The translations under genes and the position numbers were made by a program. From contig NZ_JBFRYB010000001.1 of assembly GCF_040892595.1 (NCBI RefSeq), positions 682,001-746,000 on the forward strand: 64,000 bases of DNA. Direction: 5' to 3'. Below, in pieces: positions 3,001 to 50,990 of this stretch. Source of the stretch: Zhongshania sp. R06B22. Its GTDB lineage: Bacteria > Pseudomonadota > Gammaproteobacteria > Pseudomonadales > Spongiibacteraceae. A model generated the notes under the pieces. The model was given only the letters and a program-made list of their open reading frames with translations. It was not told the origin of the DNA and did no database searches. Position 1 is the stretch's first letter, and every line of letters starts with the position of its first letter.

Positions 3001-3410
3001 TGGAAAAATTAATCCCTTTTGTAGCTGAGCAGTGGATACTTATCTCAGCGTTAATCTCGTGCCTGCTGTTGTTGAGCTTTCACGAGTCACGACGCGCGGG
3101 TAAGTCGATTACTCCCCAGCAGATGGTGATCTTGATAAACCAGCAGGGCGCGGTGGTGGTAGATCTGCGGGATAAAGCTGAGTATACCAAGGGTCATATT
3201 CTCGACTCTGTGAATGTGCCCTTTGCGAAGTTAGACAAAGAACTTGAAGATTTAGGCGATAAAGAAAAACCGATAGTATTGGTGTGTAAGCTTGGTCAGC
3301 ACGCCACTGCGGCGGGCAAAAAACTAGGTGCTAAAGGTTATACCCAAGTCCACCGTTTGAAAGGTGGTATTTCGGAATGGCAGGCGATGCAGATGCCGCT
3401 GGTAAAATAA
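3001..3410 (+). CDS. Membrane-anchored rhodanese-like protein (YibN type)
   Basis: 136 residues from the ATG at 3001, which has an AGAGAG ribosome site eight bases upstream; an upstream in-frame start would add 24 residues without membrane or domain character. Residues 10-27 form one membrane segment and 35-136 a rhodanese domain. The active-site loop is CKLGQH with Cys96. Such proteins handle persulfide sulfur or act as thiol partners. The order rhodanese, grxC, secB is the usual gammaproteobacterial arrangement, so a role in redox or export homeostasis is inferred; the substrate is unknown. Confidence 0.88.
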
Positions 3411-4755: not shown

Positions 4756-4791
4756 TCATTCCCCTCGTTTAATTTTCGCGTCGAAGTAATT

Positions 4792-5131
4792 CCCCCTTTG
4801 AGCTCGCCGAGCATCTCATAAACTCCATGGGAGTCTTTTAGCGAGGACTGTTTGAGCGCAGCGAGTTCCGCAGCGTTCCCATTGAGTTTCTGGGAAGCGC
4901 AGGGCAGCCGAAGGCCGAGTGATGGGGGCGAATTTTCTTGCCTACTTCTTTTTTCGCAAAAAGAAGTAGGTCGCCTTAGGAGGCGAAAACCATATTGGTC
5001 GTGGGCTGAATTACTAAATTAGCCTAGTTTCGCCCAGCTGGGCGAGTGCCTTTTCTTTGAGCGGCTAAAGAAAAGGCACCAAAAGAAAGGCCGCCCCGGC
5101 TTCGCTGCCGATGGCAAAATGCCGCCATCGG
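4792..5131. repeat. Long hairpin-rich intergenic repeat, copy 1
   Basis: 340 bases, nearly identical to 5329-5668. It contains three nested palindromes in a row: a 13-bp hairpin with arms CCTACTTCTTTTT / AAAAAGAAGTAGG (4941-4970), a 13-bp hairpin with arms GTGCCTTTTCTTT / AAAGAAAAGGCAC, and CCGATGGC / GCCATCGG near the end. A diverged tail with AACTCGC...GCTCAAACAG continues to about 5248. The open reading frames in it are by-products of the repeat. No transposase or coding signal was seen. Confidence 0.9.
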
Positions 5132-5328
5132 TACTCTGCGCGCTTCGCAAGTAACGGCGCGTGAAAAACTCGCCTTCGGCTCAAACAGTTTCCCGCTTAA
5201 CCCGTTACTTGCTGCAGTGCTCGACAGCTACTCAAGGGTGGTGTGCTAATCTGAATGTTTATATAGCCAGCGAAACCTAAATAATTCTTTTGCTCTAATC
5301 CGGACAATGTTCGCGCGCGGAAGTAAAT

Positions 5329-5668
5329 CCCCCTTTGAGCTCGCCGAGCATCTCAGAAACTTAATGGGAGTTGTTTAGCGAGGACTGTTTGAGCGCAGCG
5401 AGTTCCGCAGCGTTCCCATTGAGTTTCTGGGAAGCGCAGGGCAGCCGAAGGCCGAGTGATGGGGGCGAATTTTCTTGCCTACTTCTTTTTTCGCAAAAAG
5501 AAGTAGGTCGCCTTAGAAGGCGAAAACCATATTGGTCGTGGGCTGAATTACTAAATTAGCCTAGTTTCGCCCAGCTGGGCGAGTGTCTTTTCTTTGAGCG
5601 GCCAAAGAAAAGGCACCAAAAGAAAGGCCGCCCCGGCTTCGCTGCCGATGGCAAAATGCCGCCATCGG
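5329..5668. repeat. Long hairpin-rich intergenic repeat, copy 2
   Basis: A 340-base copy of the 4792-5131 unit with only scattered substitutions and the same three palindromes. The following sequence to about 5855 adds further hairpins (GGCCTGAAGGCC; AAACGG/CCGTTT) and a diverged version of the copy 1 tail. Start-to-start distance from copy 1 is 537 bases. Confidence 0.9.
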
Positions 5669-5947
5669 GTTAACTCGGGCCATCCCTGGCCCTCGGCCTG
5701 AAGGCCGTCTTTTAGACGTTCAAAACGGCTTTCCTGCCGTTTTGTCATGGCTTACGGCGCGGGCAGCGTGCCCCGGAAAGAACTCGCTCCGCTCAAACAG
5801 CTTTTCGCTTAATCCGCAGTCCACTCCAGTGCTTAGCAGTTCCTCAAGGGTGAAAGAGTATCCGAGTGGAGGAGCTAATATCTAGGCTGTTGAGTTTTTG
5901 GCTATTATTAAAATTAAGCAGGATGTAGTTCTGAGCGCAGACGTTAA

Positions 5948-38933: not shown

Positions 38934-39373
38934 GTCTGGATATTGATCAATGGAAAGTCCATTTCCTCTTGCCTTTTCACTGAGAGGAGGTAGCTCACTG
39001 GCATTAGCTCTCTGCCATTAATACGACTATCTGCTAACAAAGCTGCATATCAAGCTAAGCGAGTTTCGGGCATAAGCAAAACACTATGTCGACAATGCAC
39101 CCCTAATTTGACATAAGGGCGGTCTGGGGCATATTTCGGCACCAATGTGGTATTTATCGAGCGAATAAGCTGTTTAGGCAGCTTGTCAGTGAACTACTAG
39201 AGCAGTTTAATCGTCAGTGAAAATGGCGCTAATATAAGGAAAATCAGCCAGGCTTCTGGCTTTTGAGCCGAATAGCGCTTATTATTCGGCTCATATTGTG
39301 ATCCAAATGCAGGCTTTATTTGGCTCAAGGCCATTACAGCAATTTGTCATAACCACGCGCAGTGTACGCAACT
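38934..39373. other. Gene-free left border of the defence island
   Basis: About 440 bases with no convincing reading frame. It contains the perfect palindrome at 39265-39292 just ahead of the Fic gene. No direct-repeat attachment site or integrase remnant could be identified by eye. Confidence 0.5.
39265..39292. promoter_or_regulatory. Perfect 10-bp inverted repeat upstream of fic
   Basis: GAGCCGAATA / TATTCGGCTC around an eight-base spacer. No U-run follows, and it lies about 80 bases before the Fic ATG, so an operator is more likely than a terminator. The Fic protein has a C-terminal winged-helix part that could bind it. Confidence 0.5.
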
Positions 39374-40537
39374 ATGCAATACATCTGGCAACTTCCGGCT
39401 TGGCAGCAGGGCACCGCCCCAGCATTTCGCTGGCGGGAAGAAACCTTGCGCCCGCAGCTAGAGCGAGTGCGCCTGCAACAGGGGCGGCTGCTCGGCCAGT
39501 CAGAATCCCTAAGCACAGAAAACCAGGCCGCGCACTTGGATGCGCTAGTACAAACCGCCCTGCGCACCAGTGAAATAGAGGGCGAAAAGTTGGATGCCGC
39601 CTCCGTGCGCTCCTCGGTCGTTCGGCACCTGGGGCTAGAGCAGGCAGCTTTTGTCGGCACCCCGAAAACCGAAGCACTGGTTAAACTGCTGATCGACGCC
39701 TCCAGTAATATTCATCAAGCCCTTAGTCAAAATACACTGTGCCAATGGCAGGCAGCCTTATTCCCTGAAGCGCCAGAACTGCAAACCCTGTATACGCCTG
39801 TTTTAAAAGGCCAGTTGCGCAGCGATGCGCCTATGCAAGTCATCTCTGGTCGTATGGATAAACCCACTGTGCATTTTGAGGCGCCGCCTCGGCAAGGCTT
39901 GGAAGATGAGCTACAGCGTTTTACCCAGTGGTTTAACAAACCATCTGCGGATGTCGACGCCTTGCTGCGTGCTGCCATTGCCCATCTGTGGTTGATTACA
40001 TTACACCCCTTCGATGATGGCAATGGCCGTGTTACCCGCGCCGTCACCGACCGCGCGCTGGCCCAAGCCGAATCCAACAGCATTCGTTATTATTCCCTAA
40101 GCGCCGCCATCATGGCCCGCCGCAAGGAATACTACGAGCAACTGGAGCAGGCGCAAAAAGGCGACCTGGAAATCACTCCATGGCTACAGTGGTTTTTATC
40201 GGTATTAGAAGATGCCATTGCCAAGGGCCTGCAACGCTTTGAACGGGTACTCAATAAAACCCGCTTTTGGCAACAGCACGCGCAAACCGTATTAAGCGAG
40301 CGCCAGATCAAGGTACTTAACCGTCTGTTAGATACGCAAGGCGAAGAATTTATCCAAGGTATCAGCGCCAGTAAATATCAGGCAGTGGCCAAGGTCAGTA
40401 AAGCCACCGCCACCCGTGAGCTGGCTGACCTTGTACAAAAAAATTGTTTAGCGAAATTATCCGGTGGCGGCCGCAGTACCCGTTATGCATTGGCCATTTC
40501 CCTTACAGCAAACGTCACCCAAATAAATAATACCTAA
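39374..40537 (+). CDS. Fic/DOC family protein with DUF4172 and winged-helix domain
   Basis: 387 residues from the ATG at 39374 (a GTG four codons upstream is possible). An N-terminal DUF4172 region (1-80) carries the inhibitory motif TSEIEG at 65-70, with Glu69 placed to block ATP, as in class II Fic proteins. The Fic core has the catalytic motif HPFDDGNGRVTR starting at His211. A winged helix-turn-helix follows at about 310-380. Fic enzymes usually transfer AMP to a hydroxyl of a target protein. Its stop codon TAA shares its last base with the ATG of a ruined hsdM gene, so it belonged to a type I restriction operon. Confidence 0.92.
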   Translation: MQYIWQLPAWQQGTAPAFRWREETLRPQLERVRLQQGRLLGQSESLSTENQAAHLDALVQTALRTSEIEGEKLDAASVRSSVVRHLGLEQAAFVGTPKTEALVKLLIDASSNIHQALSQNTLCQWQAALFPEAPELQTLYTPVLKGQLRSDAPMQVISGRMDKPTVHFEAPPRQGLEDELQRFTQWFNKPSADVDALLRAAIAHLWLITLHPFDDGNGRVTRAVTDRALAQAESNSIRYYSLSAAIMARRKEYYEQLEQAQKGDLEITPWLQWFLSVLEDAIAKGLQRFERVLNKTRFWQQHAQTVLSERQIKVLNRLLDTQGEEFIQGISASKYQAVAKVSKATATRELADLVQKNCLAKLSGGGRSTRYALAISLTANVTQINNT

Positions 40538-40787: not shown

Positions 40788-41089
40788 TGGCAGAGCGGTA
40801 CTAGCCACGAATACGGTAATAAACGATTGCTAATTTGTATCCGATTGATTCGATGCGCTTTTATAGGTTAAGCATGATTGCACATATGGGTATTGTGTGG
40901 TCTAGTCCATACTTGATTTTCGTTTCCTAACGGAAATTTTGGGCAGAGAGGATTTGCTCAACGCATCCCAGAATAATTACAAAATATTTTGATCCTAGGC
41001 GCAAACTTAAACATGATGGTCATTGCAGATTCTGGCTACCAAGTTTATCTCGGTCTTCACAGGGAGAGCCGTGCTCGGCATAAGTGACG

Positions 41090-43918
41090 ATGACAGCACC
41101 CACAGACAAGCTAGAAACGCAAACTCGCCAAGAAATCGATGAAAAACTCACTGTCGCTGGTTGGGTGATCCAAGACAAAAAACGCATCAATTTACATGAA
41201 AGCCTTGGTGTTGCCGTTCGTGAATTCGATACTGACACTGGCCCTGCCGACTACATGCTGTTCATAGCCGGTAAAGCCTGTGGCATCATTGAAGCCAAGC
41301 GCGAAGGCGCCAGTCTCGGCCACGTCGCCGAGCAATCCGGCCGTTACGCCACCTCTAAAACCAAGCATATCCACCGCTGGGCGGCCAATGATGAAGCTCT
41401 ACCATTCTTGTATGAGGCCACCAATCACGTCATTCGCTTTCGCGACGAACGCGACCCAGCGCCACGTTCGCGCAACATTTTCCATTTTCACCGGCCAGAA
41501 ACCCTAAAAGACTGGTTAGAACAAAACGACACCTTTCGTGCTCGCTTACAACAGCTGCCCGCACTGAACACCATGGGTCTGCGTGATTGCCAAATCGACG
41601 CCGTCCACGGTATCGAAGCCTCACTCAAACAAGGTAAGCAGCGCGCCTTATTACAAATGGCCACCGGTGCCGGAAAGACCTTTACCGCCTGCACCCAAGT
41701 CTATCGCCTGGCCAAATTCGCTAAAGCCAAGCGCGTATTGTTTCTGGTTGATAGAGGCAACTTAGGCCGCCAAGCCCACAAAGAATTCCAGCAATACACC
41801 ACGCCCGACGATGGCCGCAAATTCACCGAGCTCTACAACGCCCACATCCTTGGCCCCGGTGGCATTGGCGATGAAATAAAAGTCACCATCTCCACCATCC
41901 AGCGCATGTACTCACAATTGTGCGGCAAAGAAATGGATGAAGAGATAGAAGAGCATTCCACTTTTGAGATGGGCGCCAGCACCATCGCCGCGCAGGAAGT
42001 GGTCTACAATCCCCATATTCCGATAGAAACCTTCGACGTCATCATCATCGATGAATGTCACCGCTCCATCTACAACCTGTGGAGCCAGGTGCTCGATTAC
42101 TTTGATGCCTTCTTAATCGGCCTTACCGCCACGCCCACCAAAAAAACCATCGGCTACTTTCACCAAAACGTGGTTTCGGAATACACCCACGAAGATGCCG
42201 TCATCGACCGCGTTAACGTCGGTTACGACATCTACCGCATTAAAACCGAAAAGTCCGAGCAGGGCGGTTTAATGGAGGCCGGTACCAATATCGAAGTGCG
42301 CGACCGCCTCACCAAACAAAAACGCTGGGAGCTACTCGACGAAGACGAGCAATACCAAAGAACCCAGCTCGACCGCAGCGTGATCGCCCCCAACCAAATA
42401 CGCACCGTGATTCAAACCTTTAAAGACCGCTGCCTGCCCGAATGCTTCCCCGGCCGCAGTTGGGTACCCAAAACCCTATTCTTCGCTAAAGACGACGACC
42501 ACGCCGATCGCATCGTCGATGCTATCCGTGAGGCCTTCGGTGAAGGCAACGACTTCTGTAAAAAAGTCACCTACCGTGTTGGCAAAAAAGGCGCAGAACA
42601 AACCATCCAAGAATTCCGCACCAGCCCACGCCTGCGCATCGCCGTCACTGTCGATATGATCGCCACCGGCACCGACATCAAACCGCTGGAGTGCCTGGTG
42701 TTTATGCGCGATGTTCGCAGCCAAGCCTATTACGAACAAATGAAAGGCCGTGGCACCCGCGTCATCGCTGATGACGTACTGCTTAAAGTCACACCCGATG
42801 CCCCCACCAAAACCCGCTTTGTGCTGGTCGATGCCGTCGGCGTCACCGAAACCGACAAAACCGAAACAAAAAGTCTTGAGAGCAAACCCTCAGTCACTAC
42901 CGAAAAACTCATGCAGCAAATCGCCATGGGCGATAGAAGCCCCGAAAGCCTGCAAACCCTGGGCAATCGCTTAATCCGTTTAGATATGAAACTCAGCGAC
43001 GGCCAGCGTAAGCAAATCAATAAATTATTAGAAAAGATAATGGGCCATCCTCTCCCTAAGGGAGAGGACCGAGGAGAGGGTATAAAGGGTACAGAAGAGG
43101 CCAACCTAACCCTCGTCGCGGCCAAATTAGTCCACGCAGGCAATACCGATTTTCTCGCTGAACAACTCAAAGCCCAATACGGCAGCGATGAAGTCAGCGA
43201 CGAACAACGCAAAGCCGTCTATGAACCACTGGCCGACGCGGCCATTACACCCTTTCATAACCCCGATTTGCGTGAGCTATTAGAAACCCTGCGCCGCGAC
43301 ACCGATCAACTGGTCGACGACAGCGCCGATGAATTGCTAGAGGCCGGCTACGATGCCGAAAAAGCCCAGGGCATCATCAGCCGCTACGAAAGTTTTATTA
43401 AAGAACACAAAGACGAACTCGATGCCATCCAGCTGATCTACGCCAAACCCTATACCCAGCGCCATTTAAGCTACCAACAAATTGAAGAGCTGGCAGAAGA
43501 AATAAAACAGCCCCCTTACAATATCGCACCATTAGAGGTGTGGAAGGCCTACGAGCAACTGGAAAAGGCCAAAGTCAAAGGCGTACCCGCCAAAGAGCTA
43601 CTTACAAATATTGTTAGCTTAATTAGGTTTTCTACCGGTTTAAGTGATGTGCTGGAGCCATTTCCTGAGTTGGTCAATCTGCGTTTTGAGACTTGGTTGG
43701 CTCAGCAAGAAGCAGAGCAAGGAGCCTTCAGCGATGAAAAGAGAGTGTGGTTGCAACGCATCAAAGACCAAATCGCCAATAACGCCGAATTTGAAATGGA
43801 TGATTTTGAATTAATACCCGAATGCAAAGGCGAAGGTGGGCTATTAAAAGCACAACAACTTTTTGGTGAAGAGCTCAATACAATCGTCCAAGAATTAAAC
43901 GGGTACTTAATCGCATGA
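41090..43918 (+). CDS. hsdR: Type I restriction enzyme R subunit (HsdR)
   Basis: 942 residues from the ATG at 41090; a GTG two codons upstream is possible and neither has a strong ribosome site. The N-terminal nuclease domain has the Asp...EAKRE metal motif (ADYMLFIAGKACGIIEAKRE in part). The SF2 translocase follows: Walker A ATGAGKTF, DECH box IIIDECHRS, motif III LTATPT, and motif VI MKGRGTR. A C-terminal helical region (about 700-942) binds the methylase. Residues around 654-670 (HPLPKGEDRGEG) are encoded by a palindromic repeat inserted in frame. It cuts unmodified DNA with HsdS and HsdM. Confidence 0.95.
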   Translation: MTAPTDKLETQTRQEIDEKLTVAGWVIQDKKRINLHESLGVAVREFDTDTGPADYMLFIAGKACGIIEAKREGASLGHVAEQSGRYATSKTKHIHRWAANDEALPFLYEATNHVIRFRDERDPAPRSRNIFHFHRPETLKDWLEQNDTFRARLQQLPALNTMGLRDCQIDAVHGIEASLKQGKQRALLQMATGAGKTFTACTQVYRLAKFAKAKRVLFLVDRGNLGRQAHKEFQQYTTPDDGRKFTELYNAHILGPGGIGDEIKVTISTIQRMYSQLCGKEMDEEIEEHSTFEMGASTIAAQEVVYNPHIPIETFDVIIIDECHRSIYNLWSQVLDYFDAFLIGLTATPTKKTIGYFHQNVVSEYTHEDAVIDRVNVGYDIYRIKTEKSEQGGLMEAGTNIEVRDRLTKQKRWELLDEDEQYQRTQLDRSVIAPNQIRTVIQTFKDRCLPECFPGRSWVPKTLFFAKDDDHADRIVDAIREAFGEGNDFCKKVTYRVGKKGAEQTIQEFRTSPRLRIAVTVDMIATGTDIKPLECLVFMRDVRSQAYYEQMKGRGTRVIADDVLLKVTPDAPTKTRFVLVDAVGVTETDKTETKSLESKPSVTTEKLMQQIAMGDRSPESLQTLGNRLIRLDMKLSDGQRKQINKLLEKIMGHPLPKGEDRGEGIKGTEEANLTLVAAKLVHAGNTDFLAEQLKAQYGSDEVSDEQRKAVYEPLADAAITPFHNPDLRELLETLRRDTDQLVDDSADELLEAGYDAEKAQGIISRYESFIKEHKDELDAIQLIYAKPYTQRHLSYQQIEELAEEIKQPPYNIAPLEVWKAYEQLEKAKVKGVPAKELLTNIVSLIRFSTGLSDVLEPFPELVNLRFETWLAQQEAEQGAFSDEKRVWLQRIKDQIANNAEFEMDDFELIPECKGEGGLLKAQQLFGEELNTIVQELNGYLIA
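43049..43067. repeat. Palindromic repeat inside hsdR
   Basis: CCTCTCCCT A AGGGAGAGG, followed by a partial echo GAGGAGAGGG. This is the core of a dispersed palindrome family common in gammaproteobacterial intergenic regions. Here it is in frame in a linker of HsdR. Confidence 0.75.
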
Positions 43919-43984
43919 TGCCGGCGTGTAAAGACAAAACGCCAGCACAGCCGTTTTGCACAACGAACGTTGCCCGTAGGGCGA

Positions 43985-44000
43985 AGCACATGGATGTGCT
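43985..44000. repeat. Short palindrome in the hsdR-hsdS spacer
   Basis: AGCACAT GG ATGTGCT lies within the 94-base spacer between the intact hsdR stop and the duplicated hsdR tail. The spacer is non-coding and resembles intergenic repeat DNA. Confidence 0.55.
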
Positions 44001-44016
44001 GAGTGAATTACCTGTG

Positions 44017-44052
44017 ATAGTGCAGGAGCTTAATGGATACCTCATTGCATGA
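44017..44052 (+). pseudogene. Duplicated 3' end of hsdR, fragment
   Basis: Twelve codons read IVQELNGYLIA and stop, the same as the last 11 residues of the intact HsdR ending at 43918. Eight of the eleven shared sense codons differ, all synonymously (for example CAA/CAG, TTA/CTT, GGG/GGA). Its TGA overlaps the hsdS ATG (ATGA), the usual coupled arrangement, so this fragment looks like the tail of the hsdR that originally preceded this hsdS. Confidence 0.85.
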
Positions 44053-45932
44053 GTGTTGTTGAAAGTAACCCGATTAACGAGATTTTAAAAATCCGGCGCG
44101 CTACTTGGGAGGAGCTTGAGCTTGAACGTATGGATAGGCGCGGCATGCTCCCTAAATCAGATGCTTGGAAAGCAAAATATAAAGAACCGCGAAGCGCAGA
44201 TATTGATGGCGTTGGTGCCCTCCCTGAGTATTGGTATTGGGCATCAGTTGCCCAAGTTGGATTTGTAATCAGTGGACAGACTCCTAAGGGCGTTGCTGAT
44301 GTCGAGGGTGAAGCTGGTATACCTTGGTTCAAAGTTGGGGACATGAACACAGAGGGGAATGAGCTGTTCATCCATAAAGCAAACACCTATCTTACTGTGG
44401 GCCAGCTGAACTCATTAAAATTACATGTACAGCCAGAGGGTACGGTGATTTTCCCTAAAAGAGGCGGTGCAATTGCTACTAATAAGAAAAGGGTTCTTTT
44501 TCAGCCTAGTGGTTATGACTTAAATACGATGGGTGTTTTCCCCGTTGGAGTTGACAAGAAGTACTTTTGGTATTGGTTTCAAACAGTTGATCTGGGCGCT
44601 ATAGCGGACGGAGCGATAGTGCCACAAATAAATCATGGGGATATTGAGCCGCTATTAATACCGGTCGCCCCGCCCGAACAACAAAAACGCATCGTCGCCA
44701 AAATCGAAGAACTTTTCTCCCATATCGACGCCGGCATAGCCGCCCTCAACAAAGCCAAACAACTGCTCAAACAATACCGCCAATCCGTCCTTAAGGCCGC
44801 CGTTACCGGTGAGCTCACCAAACACCTGCCTGGCCGGCAGGCAGGATGGCGTGATCCTCTGTTTAGAAATAAGTGCGGGAAGCTCGTGCCCAAAAATAGC
44901 GATAAATACTTTGCTTATGTTTTGGAGTGCGAGAATGGTTCTCTTTATAAGGGGTTTTCCAAGAACCTTTACATGCGAATAGATCAGCATTTATCTGGAC
45001 AAGGCGCAAAATGGACTAAAGAGCACAAGCCTGTTTCGATTATCCATTTCGAAGAATTTGAAACCGAAAAAGAAGCCGTTGAGCGCGAAAAGTATTTTAA
45101 GTCGGGTTCCGGTCGTGAATGGATAAACGAAATACGTGATAAAAATAATCGAAGGTTTGAACCCGCCAGCCAACTGCTAGAACGCATCCTGCTAGAGCGC
45201 CGCCAAAAATGGGAAGCGCAGCAGCTTGAGCAGTTTAAAGCGAAAGGTAAAGTGCCGAAGGATGATGGGTGGAAGGGGAAGTATAAAGACCCTGAAGCTT
45301 TTGATTCTGAGTTTGAAGTCCCTGAAGAGTGGATTGTTTGCCAGTTTGAGCAGCTAATTTTGGAATTAAAAAATGGTATTTCAAAAAAACCGTCCGAAGC
45401 TAAAGGCTTAGCAATACTTCGAATCAGTGCCGTTAGGCCTATGGTTGTATACAAAGATGATGTCCGTTTCTTACCTGAAAATTTTGATTCAAAGGACTTT
45501 GAAATAGAAGATGGTGACTTGTTGCTTACTCGTTATAACGGAAACCCTGAGTTTGTTGGGGTGTGCGGAAAGGTAAAAGGACTGGAAAATAAAACGGTTT
45601 ATCCAGATAAGTTGATGAGAGCTAGACCTGTGAGCACAAAAAAACTCTGCACTGATTATTTGGAATTATCTCTTAATTGTGGGATTTCCAAAGATTTTAT
45701 TCGTTCAGTAACGAAAACGACAGCAGGGCAATCCGGAGTGGCCGGACGTGATGTGAAAAAATGTCCAACTGTATTGCCGCCTTATGACGAGCAAGTAGAG
45801 ATAGCAAATATCGTTTCTGGAAAACTTGAAGCTATGAAACGACTAGATGTTGAGGTTGATATCCACCTCTTGAAAGCAGAGAAAAACAAACAGTCGATTT
45901 TGGCTTCGGCATTCAGTGGAGCGCTACAGTGA
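44049..45932 (+). CDS. hsdS: Type I specificity subunit (HsdS) with inserted GIY-YIG domain
   Basis: 627 residues, longer than usual for HsdS (400-500). Target-recognition half 1 (about 45-205) is followed by the central conserved helix (APPEQQKRIVAKIEELFSHI and VLKAAVTGELTKH, about 208-257). Then comes an insertion of about 115 residues: LPGRQAGWRDPLF from a palindrome, and a GIY-YIG nuclease domain (about 287-360) with AYVLECENGSLYKGFSKNL, the YMR arginine and EAVEREKYFK. HsdS resumes at EPASQLLERILLERRQKW, with recognition half 2 (about 425-580) and the C-terminal helix. It sets the DNA target of the complex. The stop overlaps the GTG of the next gene. Confidence 0.9.
   Translation: MSVVESNPINEILKIRRATWEELELERMDRRGMLPKSDAWKAKYKEPRSADIDGVGALPEYWYWASVAQVGFVISGQTPKGVADVEGEAGIPWFKVGDMNTEGNELFIHKANTYLTVGQLNSLKLHVQPEGTVIFPKRGGAIATNKKRVLFQPSGYDLNTMGVFPVGVDKKYFWYWFQTVDLGAIADGAIVPQINHGDIEPLLIPVAPPEQQKRIVAKIEELFSHIDAGIAALNKAKQLLKQYRQSVLKAAVTGELTKHLPGRQAGWRDPLFRNKCGKLVPKNSDKYFAYVLECENGSLYKGFSKNLYMRIDQHLSGQGAKWTKEHKPVSIIHFEEFETEKEAVEREKYFKSGSGREWINEIRDKNNRRFEPASQLLERILLERRQKWEAQQLEQFKAKGKVPKDDGWKGKYKDPEAFDSEFEVPEEWIVCQFEQLILELKNGISKKPSEAKGLAILRISAVRPMVVYKDDVRFLPENFDSKDFEIEDGDLLLTRYNGNPEFVGVCGKVKGLENKTVYPDKLMRARPVSTKKLCTDYLELSLNCGISKDFIRSVTKTTAGQSGVAGRDVKKCPTVLPPYDEQVEIANIVSGKLEAMKRLDVEVDIHLLKAEKNKQSILASAFSGALQ
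44825..44845. repeat. Palindrome at the start of the hsdS insertion
   Basis: The arms CCTGCCTG and CAGGCAGG flank a five-base centre. It lies exactly where HsdS similarity stops and the GIY-YIG insert begins, encoding LPGRQAG in frame. Confidence 0.75.
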
Positions 45933-47023
45933 GTGAGAGTGATTTAAGGGAAATAAAGCCGAATCCTCCGCATGGTCTTTACAGCGATGAGCATGTTATC
46001 GCTGGTATTCCAATGCCAAAACAGTCGAGGATTGAAAAGTTTTCTGACAGTGAGTGGGAGGAGTTTTCCGAAGAATATGCATATTCACTTAAAGGTTCTT
46101 ATCATAAGGTTCAAAGGTTTGGCGGTGCTGGTGATAAAGGTTTAGATGTAGCTTGTTTCATTAAAGACCATACTTTTGAGGGTGGGTGGGTTAACTATCA
46201 GTGCAAATTTTATGATCATTCTTTATACCCAGGCGATGTCTGGCTAGAATTTGGGAAGGTCATCGTATATTCGCATAGAGGGGATTATCCCACTCCGAAT
46301 AAGTATTACTTTGTTGCGCCACAGGGTTTAGGCACTTCGTTAGCAATGTTAATTGCAAAACCTAATAAACTAAAAGAAGAAATTAGAAAAAACTGGGCTG
46401 ATAAAATTGAGTCTAAAATATCAACAACTTTTAGTGCGCCCCTAACTGATGAGCTTTTAGATCACTTTGAAACCTTTGATTTCGGTATATTTGATTCTAT
46501 TTCAGTTTTAGATATGGTCGCGAGTCATGCTAAAACACCATTTCACGCAGTGAGATTTGGAGGTGGGTTGCCACCAAGACCAGAGAGTGAGTCTCCTCCA
46601 GACTTAGCTCATAGCAAGGAGCAGATTTATATCCAACAAATTCTATTGGCTGTTGGAGACAAGGAAAAAGTGGAGGTGGATGATAGATGGATTGATGCAA
46701 ATGGTTCGTATCAAAAGAACCTGCAAAGGCAGCGTGAAAGGTTTTATTCGGCTGAGTCTTTGAGAAACTTTTCTAGAGACAATGTGCCTCCTGGTACATA
46801 TGAAAATTTGCAAGAAGATGTCTTTCAAGGCGTTGTTGATATATGTGAAATGAGTTATCTCGATGGATTTGAACGAATGACAGCTACGGTGAATCATTCA
46901 TCAAAATTGTCTTTTGATTCGAGTCCTCTTCGTTCAGTAACAGGGTTAAAGGATAAGCAGGGTATTTGTCATCAACTAGTAAACCAAAAAAGGTTGAAAT
47001 GGGTGAAAATTGATGATGAATAA
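45929..47023 (+). CDS. ABC-3C system effector: Mrr-like nuclease domain plus ABC-3C C-terminal domain
   Basis: 364 residues from a GTG that overlaps the hsdS stop (GTGA). The N-terminal domain (about 35-200) has the restriction-endonuclease-fold pattern: a helix with WEEFSEEYAYSL, then FGGAGDKGLDV with Asp73, then WVNYQCKFYD with Gln91-Cys-Lys93, i.e. a D...QxK active site. The C-terminal half (about 225-364) resembles the ABC-3C 'CTD' domains that link effectors to a partner ATPase. With the next two genes it fits the ABC three-component conflict systems. A+T-richer than hsdR and hsdM. Confidence 0.78.
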   Translation: MSESDLREIKPNPPHGLYSDEHVIAGIPMPKQSRIEKFSDSEWEEFSEEYAYSLKGSYHKVQRFGGAGDKGLDVACFIKDHTFEGGWVNYQCKFYDHSLYPGDVWLEFGKVIVYSHRGDYPTPNKYYFVAPQGLGTSLAMLIAKPNKLKEEIRKNWADKIESKISTTFSAPLTDELLDHFETFDFGIFDSISVLDMVASHAKTPFHAVRFGGGLPPRPESESPPDLAHSKEQIYIQQILLAVGDKEKVEVDDRWIDANGSYQKNLQRQRERFYSAESLRNFSRDNVPPGTYENLQEDVFQGVVDICEMSYLDGFERMTATVNHSSKLSFDSSPLRSVTGLKDKQGICHQLVNQKRLKWVKIDDE

Positions 47024-49359: not shown

Positions 49360-49503
49360 ATGAGCGCATCAGAAATAGTCAACAAAGTCTGGAACTACGC
49401 TCACGTATTGCGTGACGATGGCGTATGCTGCGGTCTTTTTGTATGGCTGAAGGCTCCCGTCGAAAAAATTACTGTTAATATGATTGAGAAAAGTTATCTA
49501 TGA
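49360..49503 (+). pseudogene. Duplicated 5' end of hsdM, fragment (46-codon frame)
   Basis: From the ATG at 49360 the first 22 codons encode the same residues as the first 22 of the intact HsdM (MSASEIVNKVWNY...DDGV), but 12 codons differ, all at synonymous positions. After codon 22 similarity ends and an unrelated 24-codon frame runs to a TGA that overlaps the ATG of the intact hsdM. It looks like the start of a second hsdM allele left behind by a recombination. Confidence 0.88.
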
Positions 49504-50990
49504 GTGCGTCTGAGATCGTAAACAAAGTCTGGAACTACGCCCACGTCTTACGCGATGACGGCGTAGGTTATGGCGACTATGTAGAGCAGATAACATTTCT
49601 CATTTTCCTGAAAATGGCCGATGAACGCGAAGAGTCCGGCCAACAAGTCGCCGTTCCTGAAAAATACAGCTGGTCAAAACTGGTCAAGCTCGACGGTGAT
49701 GCGCTGGAAATTCAGTACCGCCATACCCTCGAAGAGCTGGGCAAGCAAAACGGTATGTTAGGCACTATCTTCCGCAAGGCGCAAAACAAAATCCAAGACC
49801 CGGCCAAGCTCGAACGCCTGATCAAGCTCATCGAAAAAGAAGCCTGGTCAACTTTGCCGGTGGACGTTAAAGGTGAGATCTATGAAGGCCTGCTAGAGCG
49901 CAACGCTCAGGATGTAAAAGGCGGCGCCGGCCAATACTTTACCCCGCGCGCCTTAATTCAGGCCATGGTCGACGTAATGCAGCCCAAGGTAATGGACACC
50001 GTCGCCGACCCTGCAACCGGCACCGGCGGCTTTTTGTTGGCGGCTTATGATTATATGGCCCCACAAGCCACCTCAAAAAAAGAACAAAAGCATTTACGTG
50101 AAAGCGCTCTGCGCGGTAATGACATCGTCGATAGCGTCACCCGCTTATGCGCCATGAACCTCTACTTACATGGCATAGGCAGCGCCGACGGCGAATGCCC
50201 TGTTATTAGTCAGGATGCCTTAGCCAAAGAAGTGAATGAAAAAGATTTGGTGGATATCGTCTTAGCCAATCCACCCTTCGGTAAAAAAAGCTCCATTACC
50301 ATTATTAGCGAAAAAACCGGTAAAGCCGAATCTGAAAAACTCACTTACGAGCGCGAGGACTTCTGGGCCACCACCTCCAACAAACAACTTAACTTCGTTC
50401 AGCATATCTATAACATGCTAAAAATCGACGGCAAAGCTGCCGTCGTTGTACCCGATAACGTCCTCTTCGAAGGCGGCGCCGGCGAAACCATCCGCAAAAA
50501 TTTATTAGAGCGCACCAACCTCCACACCATTCTGCGCCTACCCACGGGTATCTTTTATGCACAGGGCGTAAAGGCGAATGTTATTTTCTTTGACAATAAA
50601 CCTGCCTCAAAAAACCCCTGGACTAAAAAGCTCTGGATCTATGACTTTCGCACTAATATCCATATGACCCTAAAAACCAATCGCCTCAAAAAGACCGACT
50701 TCGAGGAATTCATCAAACTCTACAAACCCGATGACATTAGCAAACGCAAAGCTACTTGGGATGGCGCAAAAGGACAGGGCAGATGGAGAAGCTACAGCTA
50801 TGAAGAAATCATAGCCAGAGACAAAACTAACCTCGATATCTTCTGGTTGAGAGATGATTCGCTAGAAGATACCGAAAACCTGCCTGCGCCTGAAGTATTG
50901 GCCGCTGAGATAGTTGAACAGTTGGCGGCAGCGCTGGAGGAGTTTCGATCTGTTGAAGAGGTGCTTTTAGGCAATGGCGATGGCTTATGA
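49500..50990 (+). CDS. hsdM: Type I restriction-modification methylase (HsdM)
   Basis: 496 residues. The N-terminal helical domain (about 1-130) is followed by the N6-adenine methylase core: GAGQYFTPRALI, SAM motif DPATGTGGF near 178, and catalytic NPPFG near 258. It methylates the HsdS-defined target. The stop of the upstream 46-codon frame overlaps its ATG. hsdM is last in the order hsdR, hsdS, three ABC-3C genes, hsdM. Codon use resembles hsdR rather than the ABC-3C genes. Confidence 0.96.
   Translation: MSASEIVNKVWNYAHVLRDDGVGYGDYVEQITFLIFLKMADEREESGQQVAVPEKYSWSKLVKLDGDALEIQYRHTLEELGKQNGMLGTIFRKAQNKIQDPAKLERLIKLIEKEAWSTLPVDVKGEIYEGLLERNAQDVKGGAGQYFTPRALIQAMVDVMQPKVMDTVADPATGTGGFLLAAYDYMAPQATSKKEQKHLRESALRGNDIVDSVTRLCAMNLYLHGIGSADGECPVISQDALAKEVNEKDLVDIVLANPPFGKKSSITIISEKTGKAESEKLTYEREDFWATTSNKQLNFVQHIYNMLKIDGKAAVVVPDNVLFEGGAGETIRKNLLERTNLHTILRLPTGIFYAQGVKANVIFFDNKPASKNPWTKKLWIYDFRTNIHMTLKTNRLKKTDFEEFIKLYKPDDISKRKATWDGAKGQGRWRSYSYEEIIARDKTNLDIFWLRDDSLEDTENLPAPEVLAAEIVEQLAAALEEFRSVEEVLLGNGDGL

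What the first reader, a model, noticed from the sequence alone, without database searches (positions are those of the whole stretch)
49360..49503. Extra 22-codon hsdM start upstream of intact hsdM, with 12 synonymous differences and none nonsynonymous
This mirrors the hsdR scar at the other end of the cassette. The two scars bracket hsdS plus the three ABC-3C genes, so the donor segment seems to carry the edges of its original hsdR and hsdM. It suggests that whole inserts between hsdR and hsdM move between type I loci by recombination outside the edges. The short frame now overlaps the real hsdM start by ATGA and may affect its translation.
Basis: partly seen in the sequence, partly recalled or inferred. 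Interest (0 to 1): 0.75.

Follow-up and report, generated by a model that had tools for sequence, protein, structure and literature searches.

The report
Gene-edge scars flanking swapped phage-defence genes
A bacterial anti-virus (type I restriction) operon carries a second anti-virus system (Lamassu) in its middle, and the short broken copies of the operon's own genes at both edges of that insert look like footprints of defence-gene swapping that also keep the chain of translation unbroken, a pattern that recurs in unrelated bacteria.

Summary
Window 49360-49425 repeats the first 22 codons of hsdM (49500-50990) with 12 synonymous and no nonsynonymous differences; a matching hsdR-tail fragment (44005-44052) lies before hsdS. 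Between them sit hsdS and a three-gene ABC-3C system that PADLOC calls Lamassu (lmuA-lmuC-lmuB). Both scars resemble another allele (L034) more than the window's own intact genes, so local tandem duplication is unlikely. Such scars recur: hsdM heads and/or hsdR tails occur in 7 of 42 hsdR-hsdS-cargo-hsdM loci, with different cargo, and cargo with orphan hsdM heads also lies outside type I loci. In L019 the same Lamassu sits between an hsdR head and a 14-bp hsdM-head relic, so the Lamassu-hsdM linkage is older than this locus. New here: all six hsdR tails found, and three of four clean hsdM heads, form in-frame mini-cistrons; each tail's start overlaps the upstream stop, and all nine end at or just inside the next gene's start. 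The window has both (43915-44052, 49360-49503). Best reading: imprecise allele exchange of embedded defence cargo, filtered by selection for uninterrupted translational coupling. The complete donor operon and direction of transfer were not found; coupling is untested.

The parts
41084..43918 (+). hsdR, type I restriction endonuclease subunit, intact (944 aa)
   Evidence: ResIII and EcoEI_R_C Pfam domains; PADLOC REase_I
43915..44052 (+). Left mini-cistron, 45 codons: ATG overlaps the hsdR stop (ATGA), stop overlaps the hsdS start (ATGA)
   Evidence: open-frame analysis; both other frames have stops
44005..44052 (+). hsdR 3' tail scar (ELPVIVQELNGYLIA*), allele unlike the window's own hsdR tail
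   Evidence: blastn to L034 begins at 44005; 5 of 42 nt from L034; 11 synonymous and 3 nonsynonymous of 17 codons against own hsdR
44049..45932 (+). hsdS specificity subunit (627 aa), residues 1-259 83% identical to L034 HsdS; carries a GIY-YIG domain at residues 286-354
45929..47023 (+). lmuA (ABC-3C effector with CTD6)
   Evidence: PADLOC LmuA 9e-114; PF20282
47010..47510 (+). lmuC (ABC-3C middle component 2)
   Evidence: PADLOC LmuC 5e-52; PF20288
47482..49350 (+). lmuB (SMC-like ATPase)
   Evidence: PADLOC LmuB 4e-184
49360..49425 (+). hsdM 5' head scar, 22 codons; 12 synonymous, 0 nonsynonymous against the intact hsdM
49360..49503 (+). Right mini-cistron, 47 codons: starts 9 nt after the lmuB stop, ends on the hsdM start (ATGA)
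49434..49503 (+). Non-hsdM filler in the same frame, probably the 3' tail of an older cargo gene (inferred; no relative found)
49500..50990 (+). hsdM, intact adenine methyltransferase subunit (496 aa)
   Evidence: N6_Mtase and HsdM_N Pfam domains

Best explanation
The locus is a type I restriction operon in which the block between hsdR and hsdM (hsdS plus a Lamassu system) and its flanks come from two different alleles. An exchange joined them imprecisely inside gene ends, leaving the other allele's last hsdR codons before hsdS and its first hsdM codons after lmuB. The operon appears to be translated as a chain of stop-start overlaps (hsdR to hsdS, cargo to hsdM), so the joints that survive are those that stay in frame: the leftover hsdR tail and hsdM head now act as short bridge cistrons that pass ribosomes from one gene to the next. 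Shown: the scars, their alleles, their recurrence with other cargo and their in-frame stop-start geometry. Inferred: non-homologous joining as the mechanism, selection for coupling, and that the bridges are translated.
For: Scars of a foreign allele at both edges. Cargo slot between hsdS and hsdM in all 32 loci measured, 758-6085 nt. hsdM heads with other cargo: L034 (Hel308/HamB-like helicase), L069 (two heads), L091. hsdR tails: window, L037, L091, L095, L138, L143. Tail mini-ORFs in frame in 6 of 6; the last two came from a second sample fetched after the hypothesis was written down. hsdM heads in frame up to the next gene in 3 of 4 clean cases (window ATGA, L034 TAATG, L069 14-nt overlap). 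9 of 10 at a chance of 1/3 gives p about 4e-4. Native hsdR-to-hsdS overlap is exactly 4 nt in 23 of 33 loci without a scar. Stop-start translational coupling is reported for EcoKI hsdM-hsdS (PMC3510504). L019 shows the same Lamassu between an hsdR head and a 14-bp hsdM-head relic; 20000 random 30-mers gave no shared run above 11.
Against: No complete donor operon was found, nor an empty pre-exchange locus. The sample of clean scars is small (10) and the frame test was partly post hoc, with a simple null. L069's first head (109 codons) ends 133 nt before the next frame, so a bridge is not obligatory. L034's head has three nonsynonymous changes, so the peptide is not conserved, only the frame. 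No RNA or protein data.
Confidence: 0.62

Rival explanations
1. Exchange footprints without function: the scars are neutral leftovers of imprecise allele exchange, in frame only by chance, and will decay.
For: L034's head is accumulating nonsynonymous changes; L091, L072 and L125 heads are disrupted by insertions or deletions; L069's first head does not reach the next gene.
Against: 9 of 10 clean scars are in frame between neighbours, including 2 of 2 hsdR tails found after the prediction; all six tails start on the upstream stop and end on the hsdS start.
Confidence: 0.25
2. Donor-edge insertion: one foreign segment hsdR tail-hsdS-Lamassu-hsdM head was inserted between the resident hsdR and hsdM.
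For: Both scars and the N-terminal half of HsdS point to an L034-like allele; same alleles on both sides of the insert. This is a special case of the best explanation.
Against: The same end product arises if hsdR and hsdM were the incoming parts. In L143 the tail scar keeps the usual 4-nt overlap with hsdS while the intact hsdR ends without one, which suggests that there the scar was the resident. 66 and 48 bp are too short to place by phylogeny.
Confidence: 0.45
3. Ordinary tandem duplication of the hsdM head (and hsdR tail) within this operon, followed by divergence.
For: Direct repeat arrangement.
Against: 12 synonymous and 0 nonsynonymous changes in a dead copy are unlikely under neutral drift; scar closer to L034 and L070 than to its own hsdM; it would also have to duplicate at two ends around the same cargo; L069's heads differ from its hsdM by 36 synonymous to 4 nonsynonymous and 20 to 4.
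Confidence: 0.04
4. A site-specific mobile element that targets hsdM starts and hsdR ends and carries a restoring copy, as integrases do at tRNA genes.
For: Fragments are all near the gene ends: heads within the first 109 of about 490 codons, tails within the last 135 of about 944; hsdR tails follow RhuM genes in three loci (L037, L091, L095).
Against: No integrase, transposase or shared end sequence in the window insert; joints fall at different codons (about 5, 22, 24, 25, 30, 30, 40, 109); cargo differs in every case. Short fragments are also expected because long repeats recombine away.
Confidence: 0.06

Closest known systems
Defence genes embedded in type I restriction operons (V. cholerae TgvAB, PMC11411939; EPEC DarTG2 between hsdS and hsdR, PMC12255303, whose authors call that site a potential recombination hotspot)
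   Same: An unrelated defence system sits inside an hsd operon.
   Different: Those papers, as far as read, report no hsdR-tail or hsdM-head scars and no bridge cistrons; here the cargo is a Lamassu and sits between hsdS and hsdM.
Lamassu / ABC-three-component systems (PADLOC LmuA, LmuB, LmuC; Pfam CTD6, MC2)
   Same: All three window genes match over nearly full length.
   Different: Lodged in a type I operon and bracketed by hsd fragments.
Stop-start translational coupling of hsd genes (EcoKI hsdM-hsdS, PMC3510504)
   Same: Overlapping stop and start codons between successive hsd genes.
   Different: Here the coupling would run through truncated gene ends that serve as short bridge cistrons.
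3'-end restoration by integrating elements (tRNA-type attachment repeats)
   Same: A gene end is duplicated across an insert; L125 shows a true case at tRNA-Cys around a decayed hsdM.
   Different: No integrase or att repeat flanks the window insert; the copies differ at 18% of positions.

Membership tests
Type I restriction-modification system | hsdR, hsdM and hsdS genes together with their domains | tested here: met
   PADLOC REase_I, MTase_I, Specificity_I; Pfam ResIII, N6_Mtase, Methylase_S
Type I restriction-modification system | Methylates and restricts DNA at a bipartite site | not testable with these tools
   needs methylome or transformation assay
Lamassu (ABC-3C) | SMC-like LmuB, LmuC middle component and an LmuA effector in one operon | tested here: met
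   LmuB 4e-184, LmuC 5e-52, LmuA 9e-114; PF20282 CTD6, PF20288 MC2
Lamassu (ABC-3C) | Anti-phage or anti-plasmid activity | not testable with these tools
Tandem duplication | Copy most similar to its own neighbour | tested here: not met
   12 nt differences to own hsdM against 6 to L034 and 4 to L070 in 66 nt
Embedded cargo exchange in type I loci | Different cargo at one position in related operons | tested here: met
   gap of 758-6085 nt between hsdS and hsdM in 32 of 32 loci; Lamassu, helicase, PDC-M21, reverse transcriptase with PRTase, and others
Embedded cargo exchange in type I loci | Full-length donor operon with the same cargo and the scar allele | tested here: not met
   no hit in 84,980 species genomes with close peptide patterns (one locus, L019, is a relic) nor in 382 genomes of the order
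Translationally coupled bridge cistron | In-frame mini-ORF between upstream stop and downstream start | tested here: met
   6 of 6 hsdR tails, 3 of 4 clean hsdM heads
Translationally coupled bridge cistron | Mini-ORF is translated and needed for downstream expression | not testable with these tools
   needs ribosome profiling or reporter assays
Site-specific mobile element | Integrase or transposase and shared terminal or att repeats | tested here: not met
   none in the window insert; only the hsd repeats found

The most novel reading that the evidence does not exclude
Truncated ends of hsdR and hsdM are kept as a general class of translational bridge cistrons: defence cargo can enter or leave type I operons at almost any joint as long as a leftover gene end stays in frame, so the hsd operon works as a tolerant docking slot in which broken gene ends serve as connectors.
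Probability: 0.4. Interest if true: 0.75.

Novelty: new variant of a known kind. Interest (0 to 1): 0.57.

Why it matters
Defence genes are often found inside other defence operons, but how they get in and out without breaking the host operon is not well understood. Recurrent hsdR-tail and hsdM-head scars give a datable footprint of those exchanges, show that cargo outlives or leaves its carrier (L019, L071, L125), and suggest a simple rule, staying in frame between stop and start, that can be tested both by genome survey and with reporter constructs.

Tried and rejected
A full donor operon was sought with lmuB in one genome per species (one relic locus), in 382 genomes of the order (only distant matches at 35-46%) and in plasmids (best 46%; E. 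coli and Leptolyngbya copies show no type I operon around them). The hsdM head pattern gave nothing in viral contigs, and the window hsdM 5' region nothing in E. coli genomes. Relatives in the same family have only distant hsdM genes, so no empty site in the genus. The 70 bp between scar and hsdM was searched as peptide and DNA without a relative. Tandem duplication rejected on allele similarity. A functional HsdM-like peptide rejected because L034's copy loses conserved residues (W11G, N12S, Y13N). Related operons in the order R-M-S (21 loci) showed no scars, but the contrast with 7 of 42 is not significant (Fisher p 0.08). The sister-genome search for an empty site around L071 gave only a PDC-M21 copy without hsdM head. 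L072 and L090 heads are interrupted by insertions or on a contig end and were not counted as clean scars.

Full report
OBSERVATION. The window holds one complete type I locus, hsdR 41084-43918, hsdS 44049-45932, hsdM 49500-50990, with three genes between hsdS and hsdM. At 49360-49425 the first 22 codons of hsdM occur a second time, with 12 synonymous differences and no nonsynonymous one. The frame continues for 25 codons of non-hsdM sequence and stops at 49503, overlapping the hsdM start by ATGA. On the other side, 44005-44052 repeats the end of hsdR. The genome has no second hsdM of this family.

CARGO. The three genes are lmuA, lmuC and lmuB of a Lamassu system (PADLOC 9e-114, 5e-52, 4e-184; Pfam CTD6 and MC2 of the ABC-3C systems). 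Their GC content is 38-39% (GC3 31-36%) against 49-51% (GC3 57-58%) for hsdM and hsdR, so the cargo is foreign to the hsd genes as well.

ALLELES. The closest relative of the intact genes is L034 (same order; HsdR and HsdM about 94% identical). L034's hsdM start differs from the window scar at 6 of 66 positions, and L070's at 4, while the window's own hsdM differs at 12. The hsdR scar differs from L034's hsdR tail at 5 of 42 positions, whereas against the window's own hsdR tail 14 of 17 codons differ, 11 of them synonymously. HsdS residues 1-259 next to the hsdR scar are 83% identical to L034's. So scar, hsdS half and scar belong to one allele type and the flanking hsdR and hsdM to another. 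This argues against tandem duplication.

THE SAME LAMASSU ELSEWHERE. One locus in one-genome-per-species data encodes the same Lamassu (72-76% identity; L019, a Porticoccaceae MAG). It has no complete hsd genes, but the first 91 codons of hsdR (60% identity, with an in-frame stop) lie directly before lmuA, and GAGCGCATCAGAAA, identical to bases 4-17 of the window's hsdM scar, follows the lmuB stop. In 20000 random 30-mers of that composition the longest shared run was 11. The order hsdR...Lamassu-hsdM therefore existed before; in L019 the carrier decayed and the cargo stayed.

RECURRENCE. hsdM loci were collected from about 1990 genomes searched and read with their surroundings. The order hsdR-hsdS-cargo-hsdM is the rule in this subfamily: the gap between hsdS and hsdM was 758-6085 nt in 32 of 32 loci. 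Heads of hsdM before an intact hsdM: window; L034 (30 codons, behind a Hel308/HamB-like helicase); L069 (two, 109 and about 30 codons); L091 (disrupted). hsdR tails before hsdS: window, L037, L091, L095, L138, L143. Together 7 of 42 loci with both ends present. Orphan heads behind cargo, without hsdR or hsdS nearby on the fetched DNA: L071 (23 codons after the PDC-M21AB pair), L125 (decayed hsdM after PDC-M21AB inside an island between tRNA-Cys and a repeat of its 3' end), L147, L159, L124. PDC-M21AB also sits directly before hsdM in the type I loci L105 and L095, so the orphan units are relics of such operons. G636 has PDC-M21AB without an hsdM head.

THE FRAME RULE. Every hsdR tail found forms an open frame whose start codon overlaps the stop of the gene before it and whose stop overlaps the hsdS start: window 43915-44052 (45 codons), L037 2411-2818, L091 2224-2415, L095 5773-5847. 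After this was written down, a second sample of loci gave two more tails, L138 and L143, and both obey the rule. Of four clean hsdM heads followed by a gene, three end on or just inside its start (window ATGA, L034 TAATG, L069 second head, 14 nt inside hsdM) and one does not (L069 first head, 133 nt short). In the window the other two frames are closed by stops in both mini-ORFs. At a chance of one third per case, 9 of 10 has p about 4e-4. The null is simple and the head part is post hoc. The native hsdR-hsdS junction without scar is a 4-nt overlap in 23 of 33 loci, and coupling through overlapping stop and start codons is reported for EcoKI hsdM-hsdS (PMC3510504). I infer that the operon is read as a stop-start relay and that joints which keep the relay survive.

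MECHANISM. A crossover in homologous sequence outside the scars would exchange alleles without leaving a second copy. A second copy of a gene end needs at least one non-homologous joint. One homologous and one non-homologous end, as in homology-facilitated illegitimate recombination (own knowledge), is the simplest route: an incoming cargo-hsdM piece pairs with the resident hsdM body and joins elsewhere on its left, leaving the resident head; mirror-wise for hsdR. The fragments are short (heads within the first 22% of hsdM, tails within the last 14% of hsdR), probably because longer direct repeats recombine out. The longest uninterrupted identity between scar and intact hsdM is 20 nt in the window and 24, 32 and 5 nt in L034 and L069. 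Which allele was resident cannot be told here.

WHAT IT IS NOT. No integrase, transposase or att-like repeat flanks the window insert. The scar peptide is not under clear selection: L034's copy has lost three conserved residues.

NOVELTY. Defence genes embedded in type I operons are known (PMC11411939, PMC12255303), and the second paper calls one such site a potential recombination hotspot. The library searched here gave no description of hsdR-tail or hsdM-head scars as exchange footprints or of their in-frame bridging; most subscription papers are outside that library. I rate it a new variant of a known kind.

Noticed in passing
window 44904-45110 (within hsdS, residues 286-354): HsdS carries a GIY-YIG nuclease domain (PF01541) between its two halves, next to a translated repeat-like motif (LPGRQAG). 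Whether the specificity subunit still works is open.
   Followed up: no
L037:1449-2411, L091:1202-2227, L095 about 4772-5776: Three unrelated type I loci have a RhuM-like (Fic-linked in L037) gene between the full hsdR and the hsdR tail scar; the L037 protein matches PADLOC candidate PDC-S23.
   Followed up: partly
L125:13157-15541: A 2.3-kb island flanked by a 49-bp repeat of the tRNA-Cys 3' end holds an integrase remnant, PDC-M21AB and a decayed hsdM.
   Followed up: partly
L019:8140-11881: Lamassu retained between an hsdR head with an in-frame stop and a 14-bp hsdM relic: a defence cargo that outlived its carrier operon.
   Followed up: yes
L034:551-3407: L034's hsdR is split by frame changes near 2701-2755 and 3324-3336 (pseudogene or sequencing error).
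   Followed up: no
L035:4168-6733 (minus strand): Cargo before hsdM is a reverse transcriptase plus a PRTase-CE protein, a retron-like pair.
   Followed up: no
window 39362-40537: A Fic-domain-like gene lies upstream of hsdR; Fic-like genes recur near many of the type I loci read here.
   Followed up: no
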